In this document: piece by piece, positions 1,473 through 59,419 of the stretch
Numbering within the stretch: position 1 is the stretch's first letter
Layout of the letters: each line of letters starts with the position of its first letter
Origin: Boothiomyces macroporosus
Lineage: Eukaryota > Chytridiomycota > Chytridiomycetes > Rhizophydiales > Terramycetaceae
DNA length: 64,000 nucleotides
Assembly: GCA_027604185.1 (NCBI GenBank)
Contig: JADGKB010000032.1
Location: 1-64,000, forward strand
Reading direction: 5' to 3'
Notes under the pieces: generated by a model
Databases searched by the model: none
Told to the model about the DNA's origin: nothing
What the model saw: the letters and a program-made list of their open reading frames with translations, nothing else
Position numbers and translations under genes: made by a program

Positions 1473-4285
1473 ATGAATCCCGATCAATATTTGTATCAGC
1501 AGCAGCAACAGCCTGATGCAATGCATGGATACGAAAATCAAATGTTTGACCGACGAAGTTCCATCATGTCTATTCCAGACTATAATTATCCAGCAGAAGA
1601 GCCAGCAAGAAAGTCTTCAGTCTCGAAATCAGGCTCCACCAAACTATATGCATTACGAATAGCATCTACTCCCGGAATTTATTCTAATTGGAATTTAGCG
1701 AAAAGTCTAATTGACGGCTGTCCAGGGGCCAAATACAAAGGTTTCTTTACAGTAGAAGAGTGTATGCAATTTATATGGGAACAGTTTCCAGCCTCTACGT
1801 TTACAAAGAATGAGCAAGGAGACTACATTATGGACGATCCCGAACCAGTATATCATGTAAGCGCAAATTAATATCAGGTTATTGAAGAAGCACGATTAAA
1901 GAAAGAAAAGAATTCTGGGTTAATGATTGAAGACGATTTGTCTACATTTGATCCGAAAGACCCACAGTGCACCAAGATTATCAAATTGTATTCCCTAAAC
2001 CCAGACTTGAAATTCACTCTAAATGAAGAGCAGCTCCATGCCTTTAATTTAATCAAAAAGTCCGAAAACGTATTTATTTCTGGGGGAGTAATATTGGATT
2101 AATATTAGAAATACACTGGCAAAGATGTTTTATTGGCACATGTTTATGAGTACTTGGCAAATGCGAAAAAATACTTTCATATTACCACCGCCTCAGTGAT
2201 AACATCGCTGAATAGTCCTATTAATCATACTCTGGGATGGACCGGAATGGGCAAAGCTCTTGGAACCAAGAAGCAAATCTTGAGTAAAGTGCGAAAAAAT
2301 ACCCAAGCAAGGAAATGGTGGGCTGACACAGATGTAATTATTGTCAAGGATGCATCCCTCATGTCCGCATTTTTATTGGATATCATGGATTTCTTGGGAA
2401 AGGAGATTAGAAAAGATACACGGCCTTTTGGAGGAATTCAAATGATTTTAGTCGGAGACAGCCATGGCTTAAATCCTCCAAATGTATCAGCGGTGTGTTG
2501 CCCAAATTGCGGCCAAACCCACCGAATTGGTGGAATCAATTTTACTGCTGTCTCCTCCACCCCAGGATCGTTTATTACTTGTAACAACGATGCATGCGGC
2601 ACCTTGTTTTTGAATACATGGATATTGTATCCATTCGAAGCATCTTGCTGGGACGAAGCAAACTTTTACTATCTCAAGCTGAAGAAGAACTATGAACAAG
2701 ACCCTAATCTATCTGCTTTATATTCCGAACTAACTAAGCAACCGCCAATTTCGGACAACGCTCGCCAGATGCTTATTAATGCACGTAGACCAATTGGCGA
2801 TCAAGTAATTTCTATTTTAATCTAGACTGTATACATTTGCCCAACATTTGAAGAATCTCAAAAAATGAACGAACAAAAGCTTCAGGAATTAAGCGGGGAA
2901 TCTCTCAAATATGAGGCTCAAGATACTGTTTTAAATAACTTTGATTTCTCTTCCAGGGCACAACAGAAAGATGGTCCCACAGATGAAATTTTGTGGTTGA
3001 AAAGAGACGCCAAAGTGCTGTTTGTGGACAATCACTACCCATACACTCAACTGGGTGTGGTTGTTGGATTCGTGCAGCCTACCCCTGAGGATTTGAAACA
3101 GTCACTATCTTCTGTAACCGGAAAGAATATGAAAATGATTGAAACTTCCATCACAGAATGGCTCAACAAGTATTCTTTGCTACCACAAGTCCGCATACTT
3201 AGCACTGGGGAAATCAAGACAGTTACTTGCAAAGCGTGGGTCGTGAGATCAAATCGTAGAGCGGTGGCGTGGAGAATACAGTTGCCAATTAGATTGGCAT
3301 ATTCGGTTGCGCTTCACCGTTCACAAGATTTGCAGTTAAATTCCCTAACGGTAAGTTGGAATTAATTTAGCTTGCTCCCAGTATGGAATGGGCTTCTGGG
3401 CAAATGTACATGGCATTGTTGTTGGCGAAATCCTATGAATCCATTTGTATAGAATCATTCAATGAAAATTCATTCCTAGGAGACAAGAGAGTCCTGGAAT
3501 TTGAAGCTGCGGCCAAAGAAGGTGCCGTTTGCAAGGGTGTAAAATCAAATACTATTCCAGACAACTTTTTAAGTAATCCAAACATGAACTTGAAAAGAAA
3601 CTCTGTTGTTTCATTGCAAAATGCAAACAAAAAGAGGAGGCCATCCAAACCAATGGTAACTCCAATGGGCAGTGGAATGGGAATGGAAAATACAATGCAA
3701 ATGCCACTTAATGATCCGTTGCTCTTGCGTTACCAACAGCAGCTCTCCCAAAGAAGACATTCTTATCAACCACTGACGTCGTATCAGGAGCAGCAGTACG
3801 CTTGGATGGCGTCACAAGCACCAATAATGGGCCACGGAATGCCTCAGCAAGTGAGTAATCAAAATCTGCAGCCTAACAGACCATCTGAAAATGTATTGAA
3901 TCATTCTCCGAATTTGATGCATTCTGGACAACAACCTCTACATACAATCGCAATTCCAGAGCATTTCCCTAATATAAACCAAAAGGAATATCAAATGCCC
4001 ATTCGAACCAAAATAACTAGATTGGAAACCAGCATTCCTCATGCTGCAGGTCCAAAATCTGCCGGTACGGTAGGGCAATCGTTCATGTACAATCAAATGG
4101 GGCTTAATCAACAATTTCTTCATCCTGCCCTAGTTAAAAGCGAAAATCCTATGCAAATGCCAATTGTCAACGAAATGGGTCAGCAGAACTATCAGTCAAA
4201 TGATATTAATACCCAGAATCCTCCCCCAGACCAGTCTAATGGATACGCTAACCCTAATAATTGGCAACAGTGGAATCAATCATGA
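1473..4285 (+). CDS. Pif1-like helicase homologue with degraded motor motifs and an RNase H1-type hybrid-binding domain
   Basis: Five exons (1473-1856, 1878-2087, 2109-2804, 2826-3350, 3371-4285) join to 909 residues through introns of 21, 21, 21 and 20 nt. Residues about 57-106 match the RNase H1 N-terminal/viroplasmin domain that binds RNA-DNA hybrids (KLYALRIASTPGIYSNWN, then PGAKYKGF). A Pif1-family helicase core follows, ending in the family signature RIQLPIRLAYSVALHRSQD and a segment SGQMYMALLLA that corresponds to the usual GQvYVALSR. The motor motifs are altered: Walker A reads GGKYTGKD, with Asp where Ser/Thr should be; Walker B reads VIIVKDASLM instead of LIIDEISM; and motif III reads GDSHGLNPP. 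A CxxC...CxxxC zinc-ribbon-like insert (CCPNCGQ, CNNDACG) lies between motif III and the YPFEASCWDEANF segment. The last 200 residues are Gln/Asn/Met-rich. It is probably an ATPase-dead nucleic-acid-binding protein. Confidence 0.8.
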
Positions 4286-4405
4286 ACAATAGTATGATAT
4301 TTATTACCTTTAAAATAAATGCGTTAATATTCATTACGATAGTATAATTATAGCTTTATTAATAGTTTGAGCAGAATAATGTCTTCCTACTTTGTCCAAC
4401 AGATT

Positions 4406-5029
4406 CTACCACCAATCGATTAACCCAAGGCCCTGCTCAGCACTGCTTGCATAAATAGTGTAAGGAGCTTTCCTGCTGATCAACGCTTCATCTGTCTCTG
4501 CTTTTTTCATTGGTCCAACATCTATGAACTCCGCTTGTTCTACCCTAAATCGTATCCAATTTCCAGGATCCATGAAATATTCATTGTCGTCATATTTCCA
4601 TACCCAAACACCTTCCTCGCGATTACTATCTTAACAACTTATTACAATACAGTTCCATCCATTAGATATTGCGGAGGGATGTAAATATCATCAAAGAATT
4701 TTAAAGATACTCGAACTCCTTTTACTGCATCACAATCCTTGACCTGTCCTAGCAGAACCTGCCCTTTATAAGGCCGAAATACCACCATCCTGAATATCAC
4801 TGGATTAGAATAAATTACCTTTGCACTGATATGATCCATCTTGACAAGCGTGAATGATTGGATCAGTAGCTGATTCAATGTCGTACACTCGTAGACACAG
4901 CCCAACATTGTGCAGCACCTTGTTTGAATATTTCTTGTTTAATTCATCCTCCAGCGCTTTGAATTGGGAATATTTGAAGGATGCTGGTAGAACTCGAACC
5001 AAGTCCTCTATCGTTTCCAGAACAAACAT
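4406..5029 (-). CDS. RPC25: RNA polymerase III subunit RPC25/RPC8
   Basis: Three exons (4819-5029, 4646-4799, 4406-4625) join across introns of 19 and 20 nt into 194 residues. The protein starts MFVLETIEDLVRVLPASF and continues with ELNKKYSNKVLHNVGLCLRVYDI, the N-terminal RNP-like domain of the Rpb7/Rpc25 family. The second half carries VSLKFFDDIYIPPQYLMDGT and VWVWKYDDNEYFMDPGNWIRFRVE, the diagnostic OB domain of Rpc25, and ends GLGLIDWW, like other members. Rpc25 pairs with Rpc17 as the stalk of RNA polymerase III and helps initiation at tRNA and 5S genes in the nucleus. The longer open frame upstream to 5212 is not conserved, so the ATG at 5029 was chosen. Confidence 0.93.
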
Positions 5030-5335: not shown

Positions 5336-5363
5336 GCGAATAGCCTTGGTTCTCTGCATTATT

Positions 5364-14846: not shown

Positions 14847-15656
14847 ATGAGTTGGAATGGGTTCGTAAAAGCAATCAACCGCACCACGACAACTATTCTA
14901 CAATCTGCAGGGGCAGCGGAAAAGACTGTAATATTTGCTTATGCTAGATTGACAAGGACTTTGAAGAGCAGGAAATACGCTTCCGCCAACTTGAAACCAG
15001 GATAGAAAATATGCACAGAGAAGCGAAAGGATATTTGGATGCCGTCAGGAAGATGACTGTCGCTCAACAAAGCATTGCCGACACTATTGACCATTTTTAC
15101 GACGAAAGCGCTCAATTAGCTAAGGCAGCTCGTTCTTACAAAGACGCAATGGTGAGAATGGACGAAGAGGTTCGAACGGAACTTGATAATACCTACCGCA
15201 TTACTGTTATGGAGCCAATCGGTAAAATGGTTGGTGTGCTACCCTTCTTTAATGATGCGATCAAAAAGAGACACAAGAAATTGTTGGATTACGACCGCAC
15301 TAGAACCAGTGTAAAGAAATTAGTTGATAAACCCTCCGATAATCCAAATAAACTCCAAGCAGTAATCGCGATTAATATAGGCAGAAGCGGAATTTGCAGC
15401 AGCGAGAAATATCTATGAACCAATCAATCATCAGCTAATCACAGAAATCCCACAGCTCATCAATTTACAGGTGCCTTACTTGAATCCATCTTTTGAAGCC
15501 CTAGTCAAATCCCAATTGGCTTTCAACGAAGGAGCTTTCCACAAGCTTGAAGCCATTAAAAAGTCTTTTCCCCCAGATTCAGATCGTGGTTTAGACGGGC
15601 GTGTCGAAGCTGTTTTGCAACAAATGCGAGAGTTGTCGATTTGTAGATCCAACTGA
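14847..15656 (+). CDS. RVS161: BAR-domain protein Rvs161 (Hob3/amphiphysin-like)
   Basis: Three exons (14847-14927, 14948-15361, 15381-15656) join through introns of 20 and 19 nt into 256 residues. The start MSWNGFVKAINRTTTTILQS, then IDKDFEEQEIRFRQLE and KGYLDAVRKMTVAQQSIADT, is the N-terminal amphipathic helix and first BAR helix of Rvs161. KKRHKKLLDYDRTRTSVKKL is the second hallmark. The length fits Rvs161 and there is no SH3 domain, which separates it from Rvs167. The yeast protein forms a curved heterodimer with Rvs167 that drives scission of endocytic vesicles at actin patches. STE14 follows on the same strand after 65 bp. Confidence 0.93.
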
Positions 15657-17105: not shown

Positions 17106-18708
17106 ATGTTTGGACTGCCACTCCCATTACTCACCGACTCTTACAAGACCACGCACTTTTATCTGTATCCGGATGCCAAGAAAGTAATCGCTACTAACAC
17201 AGATGGTTGCTTACGGAGAATTCCGCAAACCGTATGAAAAAGATTCCCAAGATCAACGATTAGTATTCTATGGTATTCGGTATATCATTGAAAATTATAT
17301 TCACAAGAAATTCACTGTTGAAGACGTTGAGCAAGCAGCTGTATTTTTTGAACACCACAACGCTGGAGCAACAAATTTCCCATTTCCCAAGGATCTCTTT
17401 CTCAAATTCGTAAAGGAAAATAACGGGTAAGTCAAACTAATATAGTTACTTTCCGGTAAAGATTCAAGCTTTGCCTGAAGGATCAGTGATTTATCCTCAT
17501 GTTCCTGTCTATCAAATCACCGCAGAGGGTGAATATGCTAGGTAGAATAAACTAATTCAGACTGGTGACTTATTTGGAAACGCTGTTGACAATGGTGTGG
17601 TATCCATCTACTGTAGCAACCCTTTCACGAAGATGTAAAACCATTATTGAAGATGCGTATGCAGAAACCGTGGATGAATCAGGATACTGGTCTTTAGCAA
17701 GTAGATTACACGATTTCGGGTTCAGAGGATGCACTTCAGTTGAGCAATCTATCATTGGAGGGACAGCACATTTGTTAAACTTTGAGGGAACCGATACTTT
17801 GTCTGCTTGTTGGTATGCGCAGTATAAATTGAACAATGGAAAGCCAGTAGGGTACTCTATTCCTGCTACTGAGCATTCTGTCATGACCGCGCACATTAAC
17901 GAAAAGGTAGTCAAACCTAATCCAGGCTGCAATGACTAAATTGCTAAAAGAATTTGGAAGCGGAGTGTGCGCATGTGTGATGGACTCTTATAACTATACT
18001 AATGCACTCGAAGCTGTATTGCCTTCAGTTGCTTCACTAAAAGTAAACAAGGGCGGGTTTTTGGTTTTAAGACCAGATTCCGGAGATCCAATTCAAGTCG
18101 TACTCCAAGCACTCCGTGCCGCTGATTCTATATTTGGCTCTGATGTTAATCAAAAGGGATACAAAGTGCTTCGTGGGGTTGGTGTGATACAGGGTGATGG
18201 AATCAACGTCCACACGCTCAAAGCTATATCTGTCGCAGTTAAAAACGCAGGTTACTCTGCTCAAAATGTTGCTTACGGAATGGTACTTTAAATTTGATGA
18301 CAGGGCGGTGGATTACTACAAAAGTTAAACAGAGATACAATGTCATTCGCCACCAAGCTATGCAAGATCATTTACGCAGATGGTATCTCTAGAAATGTAA
18401 TGAAAATGCCCAAAGAGGACCCAGGCAAGAGAAGTATACCTGGCGAAACCCATATTGTAAGAGAAGATAACCAACTGCCAATCGTTTATCCTGCAGAATC
18501 AGCGCCTGCCCTTCCTAACGAGCTTGTAGTTGTTTACGATCACGGCAAGATCCCTAAATGGGATGATTTTGAAACTGTTCGCAATCGCATTGCTACTCAG
18601 TGGAAGAACTGTCCAAAAGTCCACAACCCAATTTCAAAAGAGTTGAGCGACAAGATGGTTGAAATCGAAAGCGCACAACTTGCAGTTAACGAGGCTGAAG
18701 ATGTCTGA
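17106..18708 (+). CDS. NAMPT: nicotinamide phosphoribosyltransferase
   Basis: Six exons (17106-17183, 17203-17426, 17446-17541, 17561-17906, 17926-18282, 18304-18708) join through introns of 19, 19, 19, 19 and 21 nt into 501 residues, close to the 491 of human NAMPT. Visible active-site blocks are LLTDSYKTTHFYLYP, KLHDFGFRG-like RLHDFGFRG, NFEGTDT, SIPATEHSVMTA (the phosphorylated His of the family) and VLRPDSGDPIQVVL. The Asp of GTDT marks nicotinamide rather than nicotinic acid as substrate. The enzyme makes NMN from nicotinamide and PRPP, the first step of the two-step NAD salvage route. Well-studied yeasts use nicotinamidase plus NAPRT instead, so its presence is notable. The PRPP-loop GGGLLQKL is intact. 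Confidence 0.93.
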
Positions 18709-21297: not shown

Positions 21298-22952
21298 TTA
21301 AAAATGTTCGCTAAAGTCATAGTCTTCATTGCTCACTTTGGCCTTTTTCGCAGGCTTTGATTTTTTGCCAACCGGTTCTGCTTTCTTGTTTTTACCTTCT
21401 GGTTTCTTGTTTTTTGGTTCTGATTTCTTGCTTTTTGATTCTGATTGCTTGCTTTTTGATTCTGATTGCTTGCTTTTGGATTCTGGTTTAGCTTTTGGCT
21501 CATCTTCTTCATCTTCCTCTGCAACACCTTCCTCCATCATTTCTTGCACAAAATCTGGTAATTCAGTGAATTCAATATCTCCATCAGACTCTTCATCAGA
21601 CATTTCTGGTCCAGCATCAGCCAAACTCTCTGACAATTCTTCATCATCTTCTTCAAACTCTTCGCTCTCTTCTAAATCTTCATTGCCATCATCTTCCATC
21701 TCATCGTCCATTTCCTCTTCGTATTCCATCTCATCGTCATCTGATTCTTCAAACACAATTTGCTCATTTTTTTGATATTCTTTTGGTAAAGATGGAACTG
21801 TGTCTACTGGGAACGGACCAACAGTTTTGATTTTGAAAATCTTTTCAAATTCGGATTCGTTTTTCAAACTAGACAAGTCAATCTTTGCATCAGAGTTGTG
21901 GGTTGGTGGCACTGTGTAGTAAGGGATGCGGAATTCATAGAAATCATTCATGATTGCTCTTGCTGTACTATTTAAATCTAAACCACTCTATAATTAACAA
22001 TAATTACTCTTCGAATATAGTTTTTATGCTTGGCGATTTGAACTAGAACATCATTGTAGTTCTGATATGGATGAATCTTGTACAATTGCATCAATTGTTT
22101 ATCTGTAAATCTATTGAAAAGACCAGTGACCGTGTCTTGTGGGTTTGGAATAGATTTTGCAATAGTATAGTTGCGCATCAAAACTAAATGGGATTCTTCT
22201 TCCTTTTCTGTCTTTGAAAAGATTATTCCAGTTGATTTTTCAATTTCTACATTCTCCAAACCTTTAATCTTGTACAAAATGTTGGATTTACCAGTATGCG
22301 GATATCCAACAATACCAAGCTTTGGATTTTTTACTTTTAACTTATCAACAGCTGCTTGCAATAGAGAAACGGAATCAATTTCCACATTGGTGGAAAATGG
22401 AATCACTGGATATTTGAAATAAGAAATCCATTGCGCTACTGCATCTTTAGGAACCAAGTCAACTTTAGCTAATCCAATAATAATCTTCTTGTTCTTGGAT
22501 TGTTCAAGTTCTTTTGGGTACCCATACAATGGATCTCTGGCATCAAGTGCAATTAAAATAATATTCGAGTCCGCGACAATTTCTGAATAATGCTTGTAGG
22601 ATTTCTTTAAAGTGCGCGGCTTCCTTTCTTGATCCAAGTCCATTTCCATATCTTCTTGCTCTTGTTTTGCAAGTTTTTCCAGTTTCCTCTTTTCCTTTTC
22701 CATTAATTTCTGGGTTAGATAAAAGTACTTGTTGCTTCAAGTCATCAGCTTCCATCAATATCTCTTCTTTGAATGGGAATTGGTTTGGAACTCCTGGGTC
22801 TTTCTTTGACTTTTTCTTTGGGTGTTTCTTTGCTTCCTTTCTATCTCTTCTGTGCTTCTCTGCGACACGCTTTATAATCTTGTACCTGTCTCTTCCAGTT
22901 TGGCGTTTACTCTTATGTTCTAGGTTAATTGAATCCTACTTTTTGGAACCAT
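21298..22952 (-). CDS. nucleostemin/GNL3-Grn1-like nucleolar GTPase homologue with altered G motifs
   Basis: Four exons (22940-22952, 22729-22919, 22008-22709, 21298-21987) join through introns of 20, 19 and 20 nt into 531 residues. The first exon is only 13 nt. The N-terminus MVPKKHKSKRQTGRDRYKII and the block KKSKKDPGVPNQFPFKEEIL are typical of GNL3/Grn1. The GTPase is circularly permuted as in this family: LDARDPLYGYPKELE comes first, then GLAKVDLVPKD, then the P-loop GYPHTGKSNILYKIKG. The usual NKxD is AKVD, and where DxxG/DSPG is expected I read LVLMRNYTIAKS. GTP binding may therefore be weak or lost. The C-terminus is an acidic domain followed by Lys/Ser repeats (SESKSKQ in series). The family acts in 60S ribosome assembly in the nucleolus. 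Confidence 0.85.
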
Positions 22953-24912: not shown

Positions 24913-25381
24913 ATGGCAGATCCAATTGAAAACTACGAACTACCAAAATCCACAATACAAAAGATTTGCAAAGGAGTACTGCCAGAAGGAACCAATCTGC
25001 AAAAAGAAGCTCGAGAAGCAATCACAAAAGCGTCGACTGTATTCATCAATTACCTAACAGCAGTTGCGAACGAGCAGGCAATAAAGCAAGACAGAAAAAC
25101 TATAAATTCATCAGATATATTTAAAGCCTTGGAAATACTTGAACTCGATGGGTCAATATTAGATCCAGTAAGAGAAGCTACTACTCGTACTTTGTATTAA
25201 TTTAGAATATATTCAAATACAAAAAGAAAAGAGAAATGAGTATAGAAAGCGAAAGTCTTTACAGAACAGTATGAGTAATGAAAGCAATGAGCAAGTGGAT
25301 GAGCATATTGATGATGAAGAGTTGGGCGATAATGATGTTGATATGGAGCATGTTGAAACTGATCAAGAAGAATTGAAATAA
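24913..25381 (+). CDS. DPB4: DNA polymerase epsilon histone-fold subunit Dpb4/POLE3
   Basis: Two exons (24913-25186, 25206-25381) join across the 19-nt intron gtactttgtattaatttag into 149 residues. The N-terminal 90 residues are a histone fold of the Dpb4/POLE3 type: LPKSTIQKICKGVLPEGTNL, then EAREAITKASTVFINYLTAV and DRKTINSSDIFKALEILE. The splice restores a basic linker and an acidic tail (VDEHIDDEELGDNDVDMEHV), as in other members. Dpb4 pairs with Dpb3 in polymerase epsilon and with a second partner in CHRAC/ISW2 chromatin remodelers. Without the intron the frame stops at base 25200 and the tail is lost. Confidence 0.85.
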
Positions 25382-43632: not shown

Positions 43633-44554
43633 ATGAACTTGGACCATAAGAAAATTACACTCCCAATGATAACTAAAAGGACAAGAAATCAAGCGATAGC
43701 AGCAACAGGAGGGGCAATCATTACGAGCATAACCAGTAATTATTCCTAACCCAGTGAATCCTTTTGATGTGCTCAAGACAAGAATGCAATATGAAGCTCA
43801 GCAGAATATCAATATACTCAGGTCAAAAGCTACGTTTGAAGGTATGATCCATATAGCACAAACAGAAGGAATATTGAAGCTATGGAGAGGATTGGGTCCG
43901 TCTCTCCTATTTTCGATCCCATCAATAATATTATATTACGTTGGATATGAAGAGCTTCGAAATATGTTCAATTCAAACAATGTTGCATATGCGCCTCTGT
44001 TATCGGGAGCGATCGCAAGGACTTTTGCAGTTACAATCACTTCACCAATAGAATTAATTAGAACTAAAACGCAAGCAGGCACCAAGAGTGCTACCAATGT
44101 ATTTATTGATGTCATCAAGCAATCAAAAACCGAAGGTTCAAGAGTGTTCTTTAGAGGATTGGGTCCAACTTTATTACGTGATGCTCCGTTTTCGGGAATA
44201 TATTGGATGTCCTTAGAAACAATCAAAGATAACATCGGAGATAGATATCCAAACAAGACCTATTTACAAGAGCTATCATTTTCCTTTATTAATGGATCAA
44301 TATCTGGAATTATAGCGGCATTTTTCACTCATCCATTTGATGTAGTAAAAACATACCAGCAAGTATCAGCTGGCTCATCCCGAATGACCGGTATATTGCA
44401 GAATGTGTATGCTACCAATGGACTTGGAGGGTTCTTTACTGGTAATTTCTATTTAACATAAGGGTTGACACCGAGACTCGCTAGGGTTAGTCCTGCTTGT
44501 GGCATCATGATTTCTGCGTATGAAATTGGAAAGCGAATTCTTAAAGAATGCTAA
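43633..44554 (+). CDS. MTM1: mitochondrial carrier of the MTM1/SLC25A39-40 type
   Basis: Three exons (43633-43735, 43755-44441, 44463-44554) join through introns of 19 and 21 nt into 293 residues. Three carrier repeats are visible, with signatures MNPFDVLKTRMQ, TSPIELIRTKTQ and THPFDVVKTYQQ. Between them come GILKLWRGLGPSLLFSIPSI and VFFRGLGPTLLRDAPFSGIY. The motif SPIELIRTK and the end TPRLARVSPACGIMISAYE are typical of Mtm1/SLC25A39-40, carriers linked to mitochondrial glutathione, iron-sulfur clusters and manganese handling. The first intron falls inside the first PxD motif and changes the usual P-L/F-D into MNPFDV after splicing. Confidence 0.88.
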
Positions 44555-44683: not shown

Positions 44684-46720
44684 ATGGAAAATATCACTGT
44701 CGCAGTCCGAGTTAGACCGTTGCTGGAAACAGAAAAGATCCAGAAAAAAGACCGCAGACAGTCGTTTCTAGTAAATGCGGAAGAGTCGGATCGAACTATC
44801 CACATCTTGGACTCTAATATTCTCTCCTTTGGTAATTATATTTAACATAGATCCACACAAGAAACCACAGGACAAGAAGCAATATGCTTTCGATAAAGTA
44901 TTCGATGATTCTGCTTCCCAGAGACAGGTATTTGAAGGAACTGCCAAGCCATTGATAGACCACGTTTTGAGCGGTTACAATTCAACTGTTTTCGCTTACG
45001 GAGCAACTGGGTGTGGAAAAACTCATACCATAACTGGTAATTGATTATAATATAGGGACTGAGCAAGATCCAGGAATTATTTACCAAACCATCAAGGAGC
45101 TCTATGAAAAACTAGAGGCGATCAAGGAAAACAACCTTGTGGAAGTAACAATGTCTTACTTGGAAGTGTATAATGAAACCATTCGGGATTTGTTTTCAAA
45201 ATCTAGCAATACATTGGAGATTAGGGAAGACAGTTCAAAGATTGTGGTTGCTGGACTGTCTGAACTAAACACCACTAGCTTGGAAAAAGTAATGAAACTT
45301 TTACTTGTTGGAAACGAAAATAGAACAAAAGCTTTTACCATGGCGAATTCAGCCAGCTCAAGATCACATGCAGTACTTCAAATCAATGTAAAACAGAAAC
45401 CAAAGTTTGGCGACACTATTAAATTGGCTACGCTAAGCATAATCGATTTGGCTGGAAGTGAAAGGGCATCTGCTACGCAAAACAAAGGAGAGCGATTGTT
45501 GGAAGGAGCTAATATTAATCGATCTTTGTTGGCACTGGGTAACTGCATCAATGCTTTATGCTCAGATAAACCTGCGCATGTTCCATATAGAAACTCTAAA
45601 TTAACTAGATTGCTAAAGTATTCTCTATCTGGAAATTGTAAAGGTTTAATAGTGCTAATATAGTGGTTATGATTGCAAACGTCAGTCCTGCAATCGCCCA
45701 CAGTGAAGAAACCCTAAATACACTAAAGTATGCCAATAGAGCAAAAGATATCAAGACAAAGGTATCCCAAAACACTGTAATAATCTCTTATATTAGATTG
45801 AAGTTTCAACACAGTTGTCGCAGTACCCTAAAATTATTGAAGAGCTGCGGGCAGAAATCCTTCGTCTACAATCTGCTATTCCAGAAAATGAAGAGTATTG
45901 TGAACGCGCTGTTGAAAAAGCGAGATTGTTGAATGAAAAAATCAAGCTAAAGCAGCAAGAATACTACAATTACCAGACAGAAATGGCTATTAATGAAGAG
46001 CAAGTAGAGAATATAAAGTGTCTGCTGCTCTCTTTTGCAAATGGACTGCAGTTGGATCAGTTAAAAAAGATGAACGATACAATTCTGCAATTAAATGAAA
46101 AGATGGATGAATTGCTTAATCAGAATAACAACTTGTATCACAACAGCGCGCAATGCCAAATCGCTTTGGAACGATACAGCAATTCACTAAACAAGCTTAC
46201 AAACAAGTATCAAGATTCTAGTAGAGTAAAGATCAAAATGTATGAATACATGATTGATAGAGAATCATTCGTTATACAGCTGCAAAGAGAATTGTTTACA
46301 AAGCAGCAAGAAACTTGTCGAAATGAAATTGCGAAATTAGTTAAATTGAATCTAGACTTTTTTGGCAAGCTGCTAGTTGATCCTACTGCATCAGTTGAGT
46401 CACTGTTGTTTCCATACATCCATGTATCGTCAAACACAGTAGAACCGGTTTTAGATTACGATACCACAGAAGCGGAATCTGAGGCAGATACAGATACAGA
46501 ATCTAACATCTTTCTACAGGTATCCAAACTCAAAGTGGAAGAAAATCGGGATTTGCTTTCAACCCCAAAGAAGAGAATCGAGAGCGATGATGAACTGCAG
46601 ACTCCAATGCAAAGGAAAAAAGTAAAGAAGACTCCAAGAACATTGAAAAAAACTCCTAAGCGCAAGCGCATGTCGATGATTCCCATAATGCGGTCATCTA
46701 GAAAGTCGTTTGATAATTGA
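44684..46720 (+). CDS. kinesin-8 motor (Kip3/KIF18-like)
   Basis: Five exons (44684-44831, 44851-45036, 45056-45643, 45664-45776, 45797-46720) join through introns of 19, 19, 20 and 20 nt into 652 residues. Motor motifs are ITVAVRVRPLL, the P-loop FAYGATGCGKTHTITG, NSASSRSHAVLQI (switch I), DLAGSERAS (switch II) and RNSKLTRLLKYSLSGNCK. The FDP element restored by the first splice and NKGERLLEGANINRSLLALG with NCINALC are kinesin-8 features. The rest is coiled coil, then an acidic stretch and a basic tail (KRKKVKKTPRTLKKTPKRKR-like). Kinesin-8 motors walk to microtubule plus ends and limit length in the spindle and cytoplasm. It is short for the class. Confidence 0.9.
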
Positions 46721-46759
46721 TAATATAATTTAAAAAATTGGACTTGATTTTTTTTGCTT

Positions 46760-47749: not shown

Positions 47750-50700
47750 TCAACTAAAAAAGATTGGAGTATCTTGGTCAACTTTGGCTGGAGGATAAAC
47801 TAATCTACCTCCCAACAAAGCTTCAGAGAGATAAGCCTTTTCTTCAAATTTGTGTTGCTTCTTTATACCCGTTGCAGGTGCGGCAGAGATGTCTCTTCCG
47901 GCATAACGAACTAATCTGCCACCACGAACAGACATTCCATCCCCTTTGTGAGATCTAGCATTTTCCAAACCTCCAGATACTCTAGTGGCATCAAACTTGT
48001 CTTGCCACACTTTACCCTAACATTAAATATTGTTTACCTTTCCAGACTTCCACCATTCAGAATTCTGGATAGCTGTGTGCAATCTTGGTTCCACGAATGA
48101 CCAAGCACCACTATTATAGGATTCTTCTTGACAGTAGACAATTTCTTCTAGAGATTCGCCATAAAAGTCAACTACAGTAGCACATTCCCAGAATGGGAAA
48201 GGATTCAATTGTTCAATTCTAACAATTGCGACATTTCTGATCTTATTCAGAAGACGAGCACGGTATAATTGATAATAAACCTGTCCGGAACAGAAGATTA
48301 CGGTGGTAATTTGATTTGGTGGCAACAAAGTGAATCCATCTTCCTTTATGTTAACAGTTTCAGTTTTTGGTGGGGCACTAGGATCTTTTACGAGAGCATA
48401 TGGAATACGTGGTTCGATATTGTTTCCGGCGTATCCTTTGAGGGCTTCACCTTCGTCGTCGTGTAATAGCAAACTTTCAAGAGCATTAGGATGTAGAACT
48501 TCTGGGATTAGTCTTTGGAATCTGGTATTTCCAGTCATTTCTTCCAAAGAAGATTTAGCAAGTGGGTGACGGAGCAATGCCTTTGATTCAAACACAATGA
48601 GAGGCTTTCTAAAGTCTCTGTGTACTTGTCTTCTAAGGGCATGGAAGTAATTACTTGGGACAGTTGGATACACCACTTGGATATTACAATCTTGATGTTG
48701 ACGTGAGGCACTATCAATATCTTCGGTGTTTCTATCTGGCATATTATATGGATCTTCGTCGCAAAGTGCCAAAAATCTTTCCATACGGGCAGAAGAGTGT
48801 TCTGGTCCTTGCCCATCATATCCGTGTGGCAAAAGCATGGTCAATCCGGATCTTTGCAACCACTTTTGTTCGCCAGAGGCAATAAATTGATCAATCATGA
48901 TTTGTGCACCATTGGCAAAGTCACCAAATTGAGCTTCCCATAAAACCAACTGGTTAGGTGATACAAGAGAGTAACCCAGTTCGAATCCAAGAATACCATA
49001 TTCAGAGAGAGATGAGTTACAGACGGTAAAGTTGCTTTGCGAAGCAACTGTACCGGCCCTGACCAAATTGTTCAATGGAACATAGGTTCTTTCATTCTTT
49101 TGATCATGGAGCAAGGCATGTCTTTGTGAAAATGTACCACGTTCCACATCTTGACCAGAAAGACGAACATGATTTCCTTCAGCCAAAAGAGTACCAAACG
49201 CCATTGCTTCAGCGGTAGCCCAATCAATACCTTCTCCATCATTGATAGACTTTACACGGGCCTTCAAAACCCTGGCGAGGTTTGAATGGGCAGTAAAGTC
49301 ATTTGGATAGGAGGAGGAGGCAGTGCCAATATAAGTGAGCAGTTCCTTGTCAATACCGGTTGTTCTAGAAGGTGTAGTAGATTCTCTTAGCTCAGAAGGC
49401 GATTTGAATCCAGTCCAAGCGCTAGAAACCCATTCAGCAGAGCTTGCTTTGTAATCCTTGCTTTTTGCAAAGTCCTCTTCCAGAATGTTCCATACTCTAG
49501 CTTTCATTGCATCAATTTCTTCTCTGGTAATAACTCCTTCTTTAATCAATTGGTCAGAGTATTTTTCCAAAACAGGAGTCATTTGACTAATTTTCTAATT
49601 CAAAAGATAATTACCTGATACATCAATGGCTGGGTGAATCCTGGTTGATCAATTTCGTTGTGGCCGTGCTTACGGTAGCATACAATATCAATTACTACAT
49701 CGGTTTTGTATTTTGCTCTCCATTTGGCAGCAAGTTGGCAAGAGTAGACTACAGCTTCAGTGTCGTCTCCGTTTACATGAATAATGGGGGCTGAAAGAGT
49801 TTTTGCAACATCAGAGCAATATGGAGTTGATCGGGACATTCTTGGATCAGTGGTAAAGCCAATTTGGTTGTTAACAATCAAGTGAATAGTGCCACCAGTT
49901 GTGTAACTTGGCAAATTGGTCATACCCAAGGTTTCGTAGACAATACCTTGACCTGCGAAAGCGGCATCACCATGCAATAAGATTGGGATTGCTTGGTTTC
50001 GTACAGTTTCATCGCTTTGGAAATACTGAATACCCCTGACTTTACCTTGAACAACGGGGTTGACGGCTTCCAAATGAGATGGGTTAGCAACCAAAGACAA
50101 ATGTACGATTTTTCCAGATGGAGTCGGTCTAGCATAATTCTAGTTTAATCAATAGCTACCATCCCCAAGTGATATTTGACGTCACCAGAACCTTCAACAT
50201 TGCTATCTTGGGTTCCAGAGAATTCAGAGAAAATAGATTCATGAGGTTTACGAACAACGTTTGCCAAGACATTCAAACGACCACGATGAGGCATACCCAT
50301 AACTACAGAGTTTGCTCCACTGTTTACGCATTCGTCAATCAAGGATTTCATGCCAGGGACCAAACTTTCACATCCTTCCAAGCCGAAACGCTTTTCACTA
50401 GGGAACTTTGTAGAAACGAAGCGTTCAAAGTGATCGGACCACATTAAACGGTCAAGAATCACAATCTTTTCGTCTTTGGTATAGCGATATTTAGTTGGAA
50501 CTTCGAATTGCTGACGGAGCCAATCGCATGCATTTCTATCTGGAATATGACCATATTCAATACCAATTGAGCCGCCTAAAATTAACAAAAGTTACAATAC
50601 ACGGATTGCAGGCTCTGTACAATTTCGCGAAGAGTCATTTCAGAATCGGTTCCTTTGACAAATTGAGGAAGAATACCAGAACCTGTGGTTAAACTAAACT

Positions 50701-51173
50701 AAACCTAAGTAGAATTTTCGATCAAGATCAGCTTCCGTGAATCCATAGTGTTCAATAGTCAATTCTGGGGCTTGCGATTCTTTTTGGAAGTTGATTTCCA
50801 GTGGATCTAATTTTGCCAATTGATGCCCTCTAATTTGATAAGCACGAACCAGTAACTGTACTTTCATGTGATCCAAGATTTCTCCTGATGGAATAGGTGC
50901 GCTTGGTGATAGAATGTCCACATCTTCCGTTGGGATTAATGTTGGTGGTGCAGTGAAAGGAACCGCAGACCCAGCAGCAACGTTCTTGAAGTAAGTTTGC
51001 CAAGAGACATGCACTGACTTTGGGTCTTTCAGCCATTCTGCATACATTGTTTCCAAATAAGAGGAAGACTGACTGTTGACGAAACTTTCCGTGTGATTCA
51101 GTGACAAGCGGGTTGAATTTGAGAACTGCCGTATACGACGGATTCCCTGTCGAGATAATTTTAAAATGCTCAT
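47750..51173 (-). CDS. KGD1: 2-oxoglutarate dehydrogenase E1 component
   Basis: Six exons (50705-51173, 50596-50682, 50160-50575, 49615-50139, 48038-49594, 47750-48016) join through introns of 22, 20, 20, 20 and 21 nt into 1106 residues. The N-terminus [20 protein letters not shown] is a mitochondrial presequence. Landmarks are [88 protein letters not shown] and [20 protein letters not shown], the thiamine-diphosphate binding part. The C-terminal end [20 protein letters not shown] is also conserved. It catalyses decarboxylation of 2-oxoglutarate in the TCA cycle with Kgd2 and Lpd1. Each splice restores a conserved block, for example [13 protein letters not shown]. Confidence 0.96.
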
Positions 51174-51325
51174 GTGTGTTGTTTTTCAGATGAGGTTGAT
51201 TTTGAAAAACGGTAATTTGTGACTATTCACCCGCCCCAAAAGAAAAAAAATCAAAAGGTAAGCCAAAACAGAGGAGATGAGCAATCATCCGTCATCAGCT
51301 GGACACGTACATCCGATTCCGGATA

Positions 51326-53575: not shown

Positions 53576-56500
53576 TTACTTGTGCCTTTTGTTGGCTTTA
53601 GAAATGCCTTTTACATTGCTCGCCTTTCTGGCTTTGAGTCCGGCATCAGTTCCCTTTACCGCGGCCTTCAAGATGTTCTTCAAGCTGCCATCAATCTTTG
53701 TGGATTTGTTCATATTACCAACAATCTTTCCAGTCAGTGGAATGTAGGAGTGAGGGTCCGCCATACCAGGTTTCTTGACGTCACCGCGTGCTTTCTTTGC
53801 TTTGTACTGTCTACCAAGCATTGCATCTACATTTGATTGATCAGTCTTGGCTTTCTTTTTACCAGCGTTCCATCTTTGGCCGACATCTTTGGTAACTTCG
53901 ACTTCTCCATTGTCTTCTTCCATTCTTTTTCGCTTGATAAACTTTACACGTCCATCTGCAGTTCTAGTAAAGGCAACTTCTGATGCTAAAGATTGCTTGT
54001 AATAATCTTCGCTAATTTCAGGTTTAGGCTCTTCCTTTTCATCCTCAGAGTCTTCAAAAACTAGCCTTCCATCTTCATTTGTTTTCGCTATTGAAAGGTT
54101 CTTTTTGGATTTCTTTACTTTGGACTGTGATAGCTTGGATACCACGTTATTGTCTAAAAAGTCAACCTCACCTTCATGAATCAGCGTCTCGGTTTTAATT
54201 TGTTTCTAAATTAATTAATTATTACGTTATTAGAAAGCTCATCCTTAAACTGTTCAGGAATGTAGTCATCATCAGAATCAAGTTCACTGTCGCTATCATG
54301 GAATGCTTTCTCAAACGATTTTGCTTGGTTTGGCTTTGCTTTCACTGCCTCTGTATCATCTTGTTCAACTGGCTGAGCCTTTCTCTTCTTTAGGGCATCT
54401 CTTCTCTTTTTAATGTTGGCAATTAATTTCTTGTCTTGTTCAGGAAAGTATTGTTCAACCTGCTCATAAGAAAACTTTCTAATCAGTCGTTCAAAGATGT
54501 GTCTTGCTTTTGATTTAAAGTGGGATTTGTGTTCTCTGGTGTGTTCCAAGATGGATGTAATCTATAATTAAATAAAAGATACAATTGATTCTACACAAGT
54601 TTCTAATACATCTTCAGGTAGACATACGATTGCCACTTTGATGAACCCTAATACAGCCTTTGTGACTTCACGATTCTTGAATGACATGCACATAATCACT
54701 GTTTTCAGTAGCTCAAGTGTTAGTTCCACATCAAGTAAAGTCGAGAACTCGAATACTAATCTGCCCAAACTAGCAATCGATGCGCTTTGCATATGTGAGG
54801 AAGAACCGCCTAAACCTGCTACAACCATCATCAAAAACTCTTTGATTGAAATTTCAGGGGTGTGTGCACCATTCTCTTCAATATCTAACGATTTGAATGC
54901 CCGGTCAAGACCTGAAGAAGATAAACCCTTTCCTGCCATCATTTTTTTGCACATTGTAATTAAGCAGTCATAAGCTGAGTCTCTTGTTTTTTCATTTGAT
55001 TCTTTGGTTGCCAACATTACTTCTGGTAGCGCGGTTGGGATAAACTGTAGAATAATCTGACTATCGGATATCAACTCTACAAATTGCTGAATTAACTTCA
55101 TTCTTGGACGAATGGCACCCGGAGATATTTTTGTGACAACATCATCGTTAAGTAGTAAATTGGACATTTCAGCAACATTGAAAGACTCTATTGGGACAGC
55201 ACCTAAAATTGCACAGAGACACTTGTAGGATTTCTTTTGCAGAGTTGAATCTGAGGACTGGATTTGTGTGGTGCAAATTTTTTGGAATTCAAGCAAAGTA
55301 GACAAATATTGCTCTTTGGAAATATAAGGGATCAATATCAAGACCAAATCAAAAATAGCGTACACGGTTAGCCTGTCAATGTCAGTTGGATTTGGATTTT
55401 CAAGCATCTGAGACACGGACTTGGTCATGGTGATGAAATAATCAGAGATTGAGGAAGCATCCGCAATCATCAACAATTTCTTGATTGTTTTTTCTAAAGT
55501 TTGGATTGTTTTTTCATGGATGGACTGCAAAGTCTGTCCTCTATGCTTATTGTTTTGAAGATCCTCTAAATCAACAGACGTGTAGATATTGCATATTGCC
55601 GATAAAAACCTGTTGACGTATTTCTGTACTTTGGAAATTACATCTTTACCTATGGAACTGCACAGCTCCTTCCATTGCAATTTTTCTTGGTCTTCACCTT
55701 CTTCTTCTTTTAGCGAAGCAAATAGGTAAAAGCTTTCGATAATATTTTCCAAGCCTTGGCAAACTGTTGGTCGCAAATCTGGCCCTGAAGGAAGGTTAGG
55801 ATACAGCTCTTTTGGCAGGGTAGTTAAAACTTTTCCTAGTCTCTTTGCCAGCTGCCCGAATGAGGAGGAAGTGTCTTCCGGTAAGGTTGCACACAAAGCA
55901 GGGAATGCAGACCAAATTTGTAACCCAAGTGTTTCAAACAATTTGGCCTCTAATTGACGATTTTCCTCCCACAAATCTCCAGATTTCTTTAGCAAACGAT
56001 CTGCCAAAGGAAGCAGTTCATCAAGATAGTATTTCAGACTGTGAGTGCCATATACTTTGTACATGTGCCATTCTGATGTGGAATGAGGACTCTCCAATGC
56101 TTTACAGAGTATAGCAAGCAAGTATGGTCTTTTGGGTTGACCAGGATATTCGTTTTCAATATTCATCGATATATGGGTAAAGAAGACTTGAAATCCAAGA
56201 TTTTGAACTGCGATTTCTAATACATGATCCATTTCCACTTTGAATGGGAAATTAGACCCGTAGCCTTTGTCATCTCGGATCACGAATATCTTTTCAAGAA
56301 GCTGTCCAACCAAAGAAGGGTGTTCGGTAGCTAAACGCTGATTTTAAATTATTAATACCTTGAATACAGCAGCGCAAATTGTGAGGATATTTCCCCAGGA
56401 GTCTCTAAAGCGGATGTTATTCAACGAGTCGTCGACTAGGGCTAACATCACGGCCAAATCACCGCCATTTGAAGAGTTCTTGATCATTCCGTCACTAACA

Positions 56501-57736
56501 CAAGTGTCGAACAGCGACGACAACAAAACGGTAGCCTTTTCTACAATCACTGGTTTAATCTGAACACTAGAATCAAATATAGTTTTAAAGATTTTTTCAA
56601 AAAGTGAGGACACTGATTTTGGATATTCTTGTGTAGCGAAGCGTTGGACATGCTCCTCACTAGAATCAATTTTGCCTATTTCGAAATCGCACACAACTTC
56701 TGATAATCTAGAAAAACTAAAAGTAATGACTGTTAGCCATAGTGGTGTGAGTACTGCATCATTTTCATATGGCGAAAGGTCCAGTAAGGCTTTCGTAAGC
56801 GAATAGAGGACTTTGAATTCTATATCATTTGGGTTTTCTGGTGATAACAGTGCTGAAAACACTTCGAAAGACCATTGAGTAAGGATATTGTGCCCATGCG
56901 CGGCCCTGCTTGGCAGCTTGAGTAATGCGGAGCACAATTTATCAAATTTCGATCTAATTTTATCATTGTTGCTCTGCATTGCAAACGTTGGAATCAAGAG
57001 CTTCAAGTTTACCAAAGCGTCAGTAGTTTGGGACTCCAGTTGTGCCTTGTTTGAAGACTTGTCAATCTGAAAGCTGTCAATTACATTAAAGTAGAATTCA
57101 ATAGCCAATATAGTTCCTGGATGGGTTAAACTTGGAGGTGGAGGATTGGAAAGAATCCTCTTGATGGCATCTACTGCTCGCTTCCTTACTTTGGGTCTAA
57201 CGTCCACTGAATACGCCAAAAGGTACTGAAAGCTCTTCTTGCAGGAAGATTCAGAGCTCCAAATGTTATTTTCTTGGGCAAACAATAAATATTCATAGCA
57301 GTTTATCACCTGGGTTAATAGGAATGTTACTCCTCTGACTGTTGGTGCATCGTCATTAAAAGTAGAAATAACCTTTTCAAATATGGTTGTAATGTCAGAA
57401 AACTTTAGGCGGAGAATATTGGATGAAATACTACTGTTAAACAAATGGCACCTTGGGAACACAACTGATAAAATATATACCGCCGCAGGAATTATGGACG
57501 AATCGCCTTCAAATGATTGGTCGATAATAGTCATCTAAAGTCATTTTCCAATTACAATAGTTCCAAAATATGCCACAGGGATAAGCGCTTCTCCTTGTTC
57601 CTGTATTGATTCCTCAATCGCTGTCAACAACACAGCGGCCTATTCTTAGTTTATGCAATACGCTTTTTTGGTTTTCCAAGCCGCTATTTATCTGACTCCT
57701 AATTTTCGACAATAGGACTAGCTCTTTGTCGTTCAT
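53576..57736 (-). CDS. RRP12: ribosome biogenesis and export factor Rrp12
   Basis: Six exons (57662-57736, 57556-57639, 56359-57534, 54583-56337, 54226-54561, 53576-54205) join through introns of 22, 21, 21, 21 and 20 nt into 1351 residues. The start LSKIRSQINSGLENQKSAAV, then AIEESIQEQGEALIPVAYFG, is the Rrp12 N-terminus. The body is HEAT-repeat-like. The C-terminus has LEHTREHKSHFKSKARHIFE, RLIRKFSYEQVEQYFPEQDK and KKLIANIKKRRDALKKRK, then acidic and Lys-rich tails, as in other Rrp12 proteins. Rrp12 binds pre-40S and pre-90S particles and helps their nuclear export. All three 21-nt introns carry an in-frame stop. Confidence 0.93.
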
Positions 57737-57768
57737 AAAAAAATCAAAAAAAAAGAAAAAAAATTAGT

Positions 57769-59419
57769 CTATTTGAATGGACGGGAGAGTAAATATGCCC
57801 CAGCAACCACAATGGCGCTACCGACTACAACGGGGAAGAATATATCTATCTGCTGAGCAATTGTAGCCCTTTCCGGTTCTATGGTAAACTTTTGTTCCCG
57901 AAGTGGTTTTGAGTGAAATTGCATTCTATTTCTGTCCAGCATAATGACCAATGACCGCCATCCTGAAGCCCTGGCAAGCAAAATTGCATCTTCCAAGTCT
58001 CTATTGCTTGCTAAATGGACAAAGTCTTCGTCATCATCCAAATAGCAAAGGTGAATATTATTTTTGTCGAATCTACCGCCATATGTTTGGAATACCTTGT
58101 TTGCCACAAATACCTTTATAGCATCTAAATCTCTAATGTTGCTAGTGAATCTACTTGTCTTGTTTGCGATTTCGTCTTTAAATTTAAACACAAATTCGTC
58201 TTGCTGTTGTTCAACCTGCGCTTTCAGAACAGAAGATGTTGGTGTAATCATAGAAGCAGAGTCATCAGGTGCAATGGATTCGCTATCAACATCCGAGTAA
58301 TGGAAATATGAATTTGGCACTCCTTCCGAGCGAAGCTCTGATCCAGTTTTTTGAGATGCTTGTTCCTATAAATAAGCAATCAACTACCCAAAACTTATTC
58401 CAAAGCGGGCCAGGCTCTTCATTCTTTTCCATTTCATTAAGTTGAGATAGCATGTGATAAGTAAGTTTAAGCACATCAGCCATTCCACAGATTACGGAAT
58501 CTCTCACGATCGGCAAGTGAAGATATCGGTTGCTATGCATTTTTTTCAAAGATTCTAACACTGTAGTGGATGGACTAACAAAGTCGGGGCTAGGAGTGTG
58601 TACTCTGCCATTAATACTAGATACCTGTTGATGAGCGTTGTAGCTGGGTCTAATTTGGCAGCAAGGACACGCAGCACCAAGTCTTTAGTTGTAAATATGC
58701 CCGCCAGACTTTGATTTTCGTCTACAGTAAGAATCCCTGTTGTTTTTGCATCTTTCATCAACTTTACTGCCTCTAATACAGTACAATTCAATGGTACCAG
58801 TGGGACTTGTAGGGATTCTACCTCCATTAAACTCTCCAGATCAGGGAATTCAATTTTTGATCGTAATAAGTTGGCAAGTTGAAGGACGGAATTTGTAGTA
58901 GAAGCAGGCAGATTTACCTCTGCACCTAAAATTGCATTCTGAATTTTTTGTGAGGATTCAGCAGCCTTCTCCATTTTGTCTAGTTGTTCGTATAAACATT
59001 TGGTAATGTCCAATACACTGAACACAGTTGCCTTTGCCTCATCATTTGAATCGTCATCCAGGCTCTCTTGGATAACTGGCAAGTGTCTAAATTTGCCTGC
59101 AATCATCTTGTTCAATGCATCAATGGCGGTATCCTAGTTTAAGCACACTTATTACTGATGTGGTTACTGACGCTGGGTTCCAAGTCATAACTGAAGAAAT
59201 GATTGTGTCTTCTGGATTCAAGTCAGCTGCAACCACTCTATATGCCAAATCCTTATCCGTTAAAATCCCAATCAATTCTCCCTCCGCATTCACAATTAAA
59301 ACTGCTTCTTGCCTCTTGGCAGCCATATATGCCGCGGCTTGAAAAATGTTGGTTTTATCGTTTAATGGGATGACTTTGTTTGGTTTTAAATTTGACACTA
59401 GTGATGCAGTTTGCTTCAT
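57769..59419 (-). CDS. CBS-PB1 protein with C-terminal membrane anchor (Mug70-like)
   Basis: Four exons (59156-59419, 58625-59133, 58388-58604, 57769-58365) join through introns of 22, 20 and 22 nt into 528 residues. Four CBS motifs are visible, for example AAYMAAKRQEAVLIVNAEGE with LIGILTDKDLAYRVV, KFRHLPVIQES, KDAKTTGILTVDENQSLAGI and RYLHLPIVRDS. A PB1 domain follows (FVFKFKDEIANKTSRFTSNI, CYLDDDEDFVHLASNRDLED), and the protein ends in one membrane helix (FFPVVVGSAIVVAGAYLLSR). This order is that of S. pombe Mug70 and its fungal relatives. CBS pairs usually bind adenosine nucleotides. The ATG at 59419 was used; a longer N-terminus on a missed exon is possible. Confidence 0.88.

What the first reader, a model, noticed from the sequence alone, without database searches (positions are those of the whole stretch)
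1473..59419. Nearly all introns are only 19-23 nt long
I resolved 83 introns in 30 genes by restoring conserved protein sequence across each junction. Every one is 19-23 nt. Clear cases are the kinesin-8 introns at 44832-44850 and 45037-45055, the DPB4 intron at 25187-25205 and the first RVS161 intron at 14928-14947. Nearly all start GTA and end with a TTAAT, CTAAY or TTRAY block about 4-8 bases before AG, so branch point and both splice sites fit in about 20 bases. Other short-intron genomes known to me are nucleomorphs and some ciliates. I know of no fungus described with such a narrow range at this size. The spliceosome must work with very little room between 5' site and branch point.
Basis: partly seen in the sequence, partly recalled or inferred. 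Interest (0 to 1): 0.92.

Follow-up and report, generated by a model that had tools for sequence, protein, structure and literature searches.

The report
Chytrid genome with 20-nucleotide introns
A free-living chytrid fungus interrupts its genes with introns that are nearly all only about 19 to 23 letters long, among the shortest known, although most of the splicing parts looked for are present and look ordinary.

Summary
Confirmed and extended. The window lies in a 15.2 Mb assembly of a chytrid, Boothiomyces (probably B. macroporosus). A gene model with flat intron lengths (10-400 nt) and only end dinucleotides required finds 78 GT-AG introns of 17-24 nt in 264 kb, against 7-20 for 22 decoy end-pairs, and no excess of longer ones. 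With tiny introns modelled, GT-AG calls of 25-300 nt (23) match decoys (20-28); 40 planted long introns raise calls to 37-50. Of 43 junctions in 10 window genes compared with homologues, 33 are supported (all 19-22 nt), 7 inconclusive, 3 refuted. The branch A sits mostly at intron nt 14-15, 5-6 nt before the end. U1, U2, U4, U6, SF1, U2AF65, Slu7, Prp18 and Cwc25 with its glycine plug are encoded; U5 was not found. This differs from published accounts of Stentor and mikrocytids. A few genes carry head-to-tail arrays of tiny introns. Public gene models already splice many of these introns; my searches found no paper describing the trait. No RNA data were available.

The parts
   Evidence: the model allows only 16-24 nt; at least two of the 108 (33023-33046 and 56442-56462) are refuted
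14928..14947 (+). intron, 20 nt, RVS161-like BAR protein
   Evidence: gap-free to amphiphysin across the junction
15362..15380 (+). intron, 19 nt, RVS161-like
17427..17445 (+). intron, 19 nt, NAMPT-like
18283..18303 (+). intron, 21 nt, NAMPT-like
21988..22007 (-). intron, 20 nt, Grn1-like GTPase
   Evidence: a one-residue gap lies 3-4 residues away
22710..22728 (-). intron, 19 nt, Grn1-like GTPase
22920..22939 (-). intron, 20 nt, Grn1-like GTPase
25187..25205 (+). intron, 19 nt, DPB4-like histone-fold protein
29093..29111 (+). intron, 19 nt, MARK-like kinase
29229..29247 (+). intron, 19 nt, MARK-like kinase
29340..29359 (+). intron, 20 nt, MARK-like kinase
29647..29666 (+). intron, 20 nt, MARK-like kinase
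31645..31665 (-). intron, 21 nt, anoctamin-like
   Evidence: one same-genus public model (P0135) agrees
31797..31817 (-). intron, 21 nt, anoctamin-like
   Evidence: P0135 agrees
32113..32132 (-). intron, 20 nt, anoctamin-like
   Evidence: P0135 agrees, P0136 departs here
32825..32844 (-). intron, 20 nt, anoctamin-like
   Evidence: P0136 agrees, P0135 lacks the next exon
33132..33151 (-). intron, 20 nt, anoctamin-like
   Evidence: P0135 agrees, P0136 skips residues upstream
43736..43754 (+). intron, 19 nt, SLC25-like carrier, just before the PFDVLKTR motif
   Evidence: weak alignment, gap-free in one of two
   Evidence: sequence as stated; homology inconclusive at this junction
45037..45055 (+). 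intron, 19 nt, kinesin-8
45644..45663 (+). intron, 20 nt, kinesin-8
45777..45796 (+). intron, 20 nt, kinesin-8
48017..48037 (-). intron, 21 nt, OGDH
   Evidence: beside a variable stretch, supported by the nearest homologues
49595..49614 (-). intron, 20 nt, OGDH
   Evidence: ten homologues gap-free
50140..50159 (-). intron, 20 nt, OGDH
   Evidence: nine of ten homologues gap-free; the Globomyces model lacks 7 residues
50576..50595 (-). intron, 20 nt, OGDH
   Evidence: ten homologues gap-free
50683..50704 (-). intron, 22 nt, OGDH
   Evidence: ten homologues gap-free at the junction
54206..54225 (-). intron, 20 nt, RRP12-like
54562..54582 (-). intron, 21 nt, RRP12-like
   Evidence: five of six agree; the Terramyces model lacks residues just upstream
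56338..56358 (-). intron, 21 nt, RRP12-like
   Evidence: six of six gap-free
57310..57330 (-). intron, 21 nt, RRP12-like
   Evidence: five of six agree; the JEL0866 model lacks 3 residues
57431..57451 (-). intron, 21 nt, frame-neutral, RRP12-like
   Evidence: four homologues lack it; public models of B. macroporosus and Terramyces keep it as 7 unalike residues
57535..57555 (-). intron, 21 nt, RRP12-like
   Evidence: six of six gap-free at the junction
57640..57661 (-). intron, 22 nt, RRP12-like

Best explanation
These are introns of the major (U2-type) spliceosome in the chytrid Boothiomyces, nearly all held to about 19-23 nt. Shown from sequence: each unit packs a GTAA-like donor, a YTRAY branch motif whose A is mostly at intron nt 14 or 15, and an AG 5-6 nt later; keeping it would shift the frame or add a stop in 376 of 415 cases; the size class recurs on 20 other contigs with no longer class above background; U1, U2, U4 and U6 with intact pairing segments and SF1, U2AF65, Slu7, Prp18, Cwc25 and an Isy1 homologue are encoded. 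Inferred: U1 then U6 read the donor, U2 the branch site, and the AG just downstream is used without a polypyrimidine tract; the floor of the range is the shortest loop that lets nt 1 reach the branch A (sharp edge at nt 14); the ceiling comes from deletion pressure in a compact genome, from a spliceosome tuned to one short loop, or both.
For: 78 GT-AG calls of 17-24 nt against 7-20 for 22 decoys; no long class despite power shown by planting; 33 of 43 junctions supported by homologues, all 19-22 nt; branch A at nt 14 in 137, nt 15 in 149 and nt 13 or less in 19 of 348 scored introns; GC-AG is the end-pair with the most branch-bearing calls among 255 others, as expected of U2-type splicing; snRNAs; protein factors; same-genus and more distant public models splice most of the examined sites.
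Against: No transcript evidence. U5 not found at E <= 0.001 (few candidates are scored). U1 just below its cut-off (68.8 against 69.5 bits). Three of 43 junctions refuted and 7 inconclusive; anoctamin support rests on one same-genus model per site. One site (31284-31303) looks like GT...TG. Tandem arrays make longer compound introns. 67 of 415 introns had no clear branch score.
Confidence: 0.88

Rival explanations
1. On the cause of the ceiling: the narrow range is purely mutational. Deletion bias shrank ordinary introns to the functional floor; nothing measures length, and the spliceosome would splice longer introns equally well.
For: The genome is compact: 216.5 kb coding of 264 kb modelled, median intergenic gap 124 nt. 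Slu7 and Prp18, which in yeast matter for longer branch-to-3' distances (recalled), are kept. PMC10245619 offers this kind of account for other short-intron genomes (section 7 read).
Against: Intergenic gaps vary (median 124, mean 214 nt) while introns do not; calls at 24-40 nt are no more frequent than decoys; extra intronic sequence appears as whole tiny units in arrays.
Confidence: 0.5
2. There is a second class of ordinary longer introns that the model cannot see.
For: The motif-free model is weak: it finds 78 where the full model finds 415, and only 6-11 of 40 planted long introns were recovered exactly.
Against: GT-AG long calls equal decoys, and planting 40 raises them clearly. The long calls examined by homology or context in the window were coding or intergenic.
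Confidence: 0.04
3. The segments are not spliced as RNA: they are assembly indels, frameshift sites or DNA segments removed in another way.
For: No RNA data.
Against: Uniform donor, branch and acceptor motifs, decoy tests, splicing factors and snRNAs present, and homologous proteins without the inserted residues.
Confidence: 0.02

Closest known systems
Chlorarachniophyte nucleomorph introns, 18-21 nt (as cited in PMC10245619, section 7 read)
   Same: Narrow size range around 20 nt and many introns
   Different: Relic algal nucleus of about 300 genes; here a 15 Mb genome of a free-living fungus
Stentor coeruleus introns, 15-16 nt (PMC9505925, passages)
   Same: Free-living host, one narrow tiny class, GT-AG ends, SF1 and U2AF found, U6 and U2 pairing segments conserved
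   Different: Stentor branch A mostly at nt 10; Slu7 and Prp18 not detected there and the Cwc25 glycine plug absent; here branch A mostly at nt 14-15 with Slu7, Prp18 and the plug present
Mikrocytid introns, 16-17 nt (PMC10245619, section 7 read)
   Same: Narrow tiny class with strong internal motifs
   Different: There 224 introns and 17-19 spliceosomal proteins in a reduced parasite; here 415 model introns in 264 kb, and every protein factor family searched for was found
Ultra-short introns of Paramecium and Nyctotherus, about 25 bp (PMC5014332, abstract and passages)
   Same: Genome-wide ultra-short introns
   Different: Different phylum and somewhat longer; there 3n introns are under pressure, here 107 of 415 are 3n and 39 would pass silently
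Stwintrons, spliceosomal twin introns of fungi (listing and abstracts only)
   Same: Several intron units in one intervening sequence, probably removed one after another
   Different: Here whole tiny introns stand head to tail, each with donor, branch site and acceptor, rather than nested

Membership tests
U2-type (major) spliceosomal introns | GT-AG ends beyond chance, with GC-AG as the minor form | tested here: met
   78 against 7-20 for 22 decoys; GC-AG has the most branch-bearing calls (5 of 12; three look clear) among 255 other end-pairs
U2-type (major) spliceosomal introns | branch motif matching the U2 GUAGUA segment | tested here: met
   TTAAT, CTAAT, TTAAC or CTAAC in 246 of 348 scored introns; U2 copies carry GUAGUA
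U2-type (major) spliceosomal introns | U1, U2, U4, U5 and U6 snRNAs | tested here: inconclusive
   U2, U4, U6 over their cut-offs, U1 at 68.8 against 69.5 bits, U5 not found
U2-type (major) spliceosomal introns | removal from RNA as a lariat | not testable with these tools
   no transcript data
Tiny-intron genomes (nucleomorph, Stentor, mikrocytids) | one narrow length class below about 25 nt across the genome | tested here: met
   264 kb from 21 contigs, 1.7% of the assembly
Tiny-intron genomes of the mikrocytid kind | reduced spliceosome | tested here: not met
   SF1, U2AF65, Slu7, Prp18, Cwc25 and Isy1 families all found; a full inventory was not made
Tiny-intron genomes of the Stentor kind | Slu7 and Prp18 undetected, Cwc25 glycine plug absent | tested here: not met
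   Cwc25 begins MGGGDLNLKKSWHP, as human CWC25 does
Tiny-intron genomes of the Stentor kind | non-conserved Isy1 N terminus | tested here: inconclusive
   first exons uncertain
Introners | many near-identical intron copies at different sites | tested here: not met
   no identical pair; 17 pairs with at most 2 mismatches against a mean of 5.0 in column-shuffled sets, a small excess (404 introns)
Stwintrons | an internal intron interrupts a splicing signal of an external one | tested here: inconclusive
   the arrays read as complete units head to tail; order of removal not testable

The most novel reading that the evidence does not exclude
The Boothiomyces spliceosome works as a fixed ruler: it accepts only a donor-to-branch loop of about 14 nt, so introns cannot lengthen except by adding whole tiny introns in tandem, and arrays of 2-4 abutting introns are removed one unit at a time through zero-length exons. 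This would be an otherwise conventional fungal spliceosome that has lost the ability to span ordinary distances.
Probability: 0.3. Interest if true: 0.88.

Novelty: new variant of a known kind. Interest (0 to 1): 0.74.

Why it matters
How short an intron a spliceosome can remove, and what must change in the machine, has been studied in ciliates, relic nuclei and a reduced parasite. A free-living fungus with thousands of 20-nt introns (about 24,000 if 415 in 264 kb is scaled to 15.2 Mb, an inference) gives a test in the kingdom that holds the best-studied spliceosomes. It already speaks against two ideas as general requirements: that such introns need a reduced spliceosome, and that they need loss of the Cwc25 plug or of Slu7 and Prp18. 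It matters in practice too: a frame-neutral tiny intron is kept as 7 spurious residues in public gene models, and tools with a larger minimum intron length would miss the class.

Tried and rejected
Early runs without motifs were weak, so decoys and planted introns were used to judge power. Long calls followed up in the window: 60 nt in OGDH (48242-48301) and 44 and 24 nt in the anoctamin-like gene are coding by homology; 386 nt (28643-29028), 132 nt (46672-46803) and 284 nt (51069-51352) join what I read as neighbouring genes. Other long calls were not examined one by one. A 21-nt RRP12 call (56442-56462) is coding. Two further motif pairs (window 25644-25681 and L017) looked like tandem introns; I now read one unit of each as coding, from recalled ARPC5 and DEAH-helicase sequence, not from a call. 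The 77 matches against 28 for the reversed pattern are not by themselves evidence for arrays, since many exons should begin with GTAA by chance; only complete chains count. In the unselected 264 kb four chains were found (three doubles, one triple), the reversed sequence gave one double; I accept two (L008, L010). Isy1: N terminus too uncertain. 18S identification failed: the request did not complete four times. U5 not found. No tRNA and no Rfam match in the window.
Full report
WHAT WAS CHECKED. The window is position 1-64000 of contig 32 of an assembly of 15,203,306 bases in 216 contigs.

ORGANISM. The spliced OGDH protein is 98% identical to that of Boothiomyces sp. JEL0838 and 75% to Globomyces. 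The RRP12-like protein is 99% identical to Boothiomyces macroporosus, 87% to Boothiomyces sp. JEL0866, 79% to Terramyces sp. JEL0728 and 54% to Globomyces pollinis-pini. Boothiomyces is a chytrid of Rhizophydiales, Terramycetaceae; a strain table lists isolates from soil and water on pollen (passages). An 18S search did not complete.

STATISTICAL TEST. I wrote a gene model with frame-specific coding statistics and introns as jumps, trained on the window plus one 10-kb stretch from each of contigs 1-20 (264 kb, 1.7% of the assembly). With any length from 10 to 400 nt equally likely and only the end dinucleotides required, GT-AG gave 78 calls of 17-24 nt; 22 decoy end-pairs gave 7-20. For 25-60, 61-120 and over 120 nt GT-AG gave 33, 19 and 31, below the decoys' 37-65, 23-40 and 33-48; decoys are inflated there because they also patch true tiny introns. 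With learned motifs and flat lengths 15-120 nt, 308 of 403 calls lie at 17-24 nt with mode 20. With tiny introns modelled and a second class of 25-300 nt allowed, GT-AG gave 23 long calls and the 22 decoys 20-28; for 8-15 nt, 12 against 11-21. Planting 40 lengthened introns per run raised long calls to 37-50 in 12 runs; 6-11 of 40 were recovered exactly and 7-20 more were overlapped. A long class of more than a few per cent is therefore unlikely in this sample.

HOMOLOGY TEST. For 10 window genes I compared the spliced products with solved structures or public proteins. Junctions supported: OGDH 5 of 5, RRP12-like 7 of 8, anoctamin-like 5 of 9, kinesin-8 3 of 4, NAMPT-like 2 of 5, RVS161-like 2 of 2, DPB4-like 1 of 1, SLC25-like carrier 1 of 2, Grn1-like GTPase 3 of 3, MARK-like kinase 4 of 4: together 33 of 43, all 19-22 nt (junction positions, and worked out by hand from the exons for the GTPase and the kinase). 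Inconclusive or not covered, 7: 34458-34478 and 32594-32614 (anoctamin-like), 44832-44850 (kinesin-8), three in NAMPT with one- or two-residue gaps beside the junction, 44442-44462 (carrier). Refuted, 3: 33023-33046, 56442-56462, 31296-31339. A 60-nt OGDH call (48242-48301) had been dropped before the count because homologues keep its residues. Single public models differ from mine at some supported sites (Globomyces at 50140, JEL0866 at 57310, Terramyces at 54562), and the five anoctamin sites each rest on one same-genus model. At 57431-57451 the public models of B. macroporosus and Terramyces keep 7 unalike residues (RCHLFNS, RYFITHS) that four other homologues lack: a frame-neutral tiny intron overlooked by annotation, and a sign that Terramyces shares the trait. 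Most other examined sites are spliced in public models, so many of these introns are already visible in databases.

ANATOMY. In 415 model introns (16-24 nt allowed) the commonest donors are GTAATT, GTATTT, GTAAAT and GTAAGT; ends are TAG 262, CAG 84, AAG 58, GAG 11. Of 348 with a clear branch score, the A is at nt 14 in 137, nt 15 in 149, nt 16 in 34 and nt 13 or less in 19; 301 have 5 or 6 nt from the A to the last base. The stretch between donor and branch is T-rich and there is no room for a tract after the branch. Density is 1.92 introns per kb of coding sequence; the median intergenic gap is 124 nt. If kept, 376 of 415 would shift the frame or add a stop; 39 would pass silently. No pair of 404 introns is identical; 17 pairs differ by at most 2 bases against a mean of 5.0 in column-shuffled sets.

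MACHINERY. Found in the same assembly: U2 (two differing copies, GUAGUA intact), U6 (ACAGAGA intact), U1 (5' end AUACUUACCUG; 68.8 bits against a cut-off of 69.5), U4. U5 was not found. Proteins: Slu7, Prp18, SF1, an Isy1 homologue and Cwc25 over their family cut-offs; the U2AF65 family match was split by introns and below its cut-off (230.7 against 310.3 bits), but the spliced protein aligns with both RNA-binding domains and the C-terminal domain of U2AF65 structures. SF1 aligns through its KH region. Cwc25 begins MGGGDLNLKKSWHP and aligns from residue 1 with human CWC25. By the tiny-intron model several of these genes carry tiny introns themselves. In Stentor, Slu7 and Prp18 were not detected, the Cwc25 glycine plug is absent and the branch A is mostly at nt 10 (passages of PMC9505925). 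Mikrocytids were reported with 17-19 spliceosomal proteins (section 7 of PMC10245619). So tiny introns do not in general require those changes, at least with a loop of about 14 nt. I did not make a full inventory.

TANDEM ARRAYS. Some intervening sequences are several tiny introns head to tail with no exon between. L008:8632-8688 (contig 6) is three units of 19 nt; L010:89-131 (contig 8) is 21+22. L045 (contig 8) has three units of 19 nt, the first two identical; L046 (contig 9) 19+20+20, the last with a weak branch motif; L047 (contig 90) 20+21+21+20; L048 (contig 99) 21+23+19. The frame across the whole array is open for L008 and L010 in the model and for L045 by eye; the model splits L045 and L046 otherwise and does not cover the first units of L047 and L048. 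In L008, removing only one or two units leaves a frame shift. METTL2-like (L008) and MCM7-like (L010) are recalled names. L045-L048 were picked because of a pattern match, so they say nothing about frequency; in the unselected 264 kb there are four chains, of which I accept two, against one in the reversed sequence. Among 404 introns, 2 are followed at once by a second motif-bearing unit, against a mean of 0.31 at 29 other offsets.

LITERATURE. Searches. No listing that I saw describes tiny introns in a chytrid or other fungus; listings were capped. Four papers hold both 'Boothiomyces' and 'intron'; I opened one, where 'intron' is a company name. A survey of 644 fungal genomes discusses intron density and length without such a class in the passages seen. 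A 590-species survey does not hold the word beginnings 'chytrid' or 'shortest' in its main text. A 2025 paper calls a 23-nt intron one of the shortest known (passages). The library lacks most subscription journals.

VERDICT. By anatomy it belongs with the known tiny-intron genomes; it differs in host (a free-living fungus), in the apparently conventional machinery, and in the tandem arrays.

Noticed in passing
L008:8632-8688, L010:89-131, L045, L046, L047, L048: Head-to-tail arrays of 2-4 complete tiny introns with no exon between; in L045 the first two 19-nt units are identical, which suggests birth by tandem duplication.
   Followed up: partly
L007:1460, L019:6371, L021:4968: Three tiny introns with GC-AG ends and a normal branch motif.
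   Followed up: partly
31284-31303: In the anoctamin-like gene a 20-nt unit with normal donor and branch motif appears to end in TG instead of AG, judged from the JEL0866 protein; one case, perhaps an assembly error.
   Followed up: partly
57431-57451: A frame-neutral 21-nt intron is kept as 7 residues in the public RRP12 models of B. macroporosus and Terramyces JEL0728.
   Followed up: yes
L001 and L002: Two U2 snRNA genes that differ in sequence, both with the branch-pairing segment intact.
   Followed up: no
L038 and L039 (contigs 49 and 100): Two contigs give identical Cwc25 gene models, so the assembly holds some duplicated sequence.
   Followed up: no
17106-18708: A NAMPT-like gene with five predicted tiny introns; best solved relatives are nicotinamide phosphoribosyltransferases.
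   Followed up: no
703-930, 5364-5819, 6216-6770, 13296-13673, 14305-14721: Five small intronless gene models whose products begin with a signal-like segment, perhaps one secreted family (likeness by eye only).
   Followed up: no
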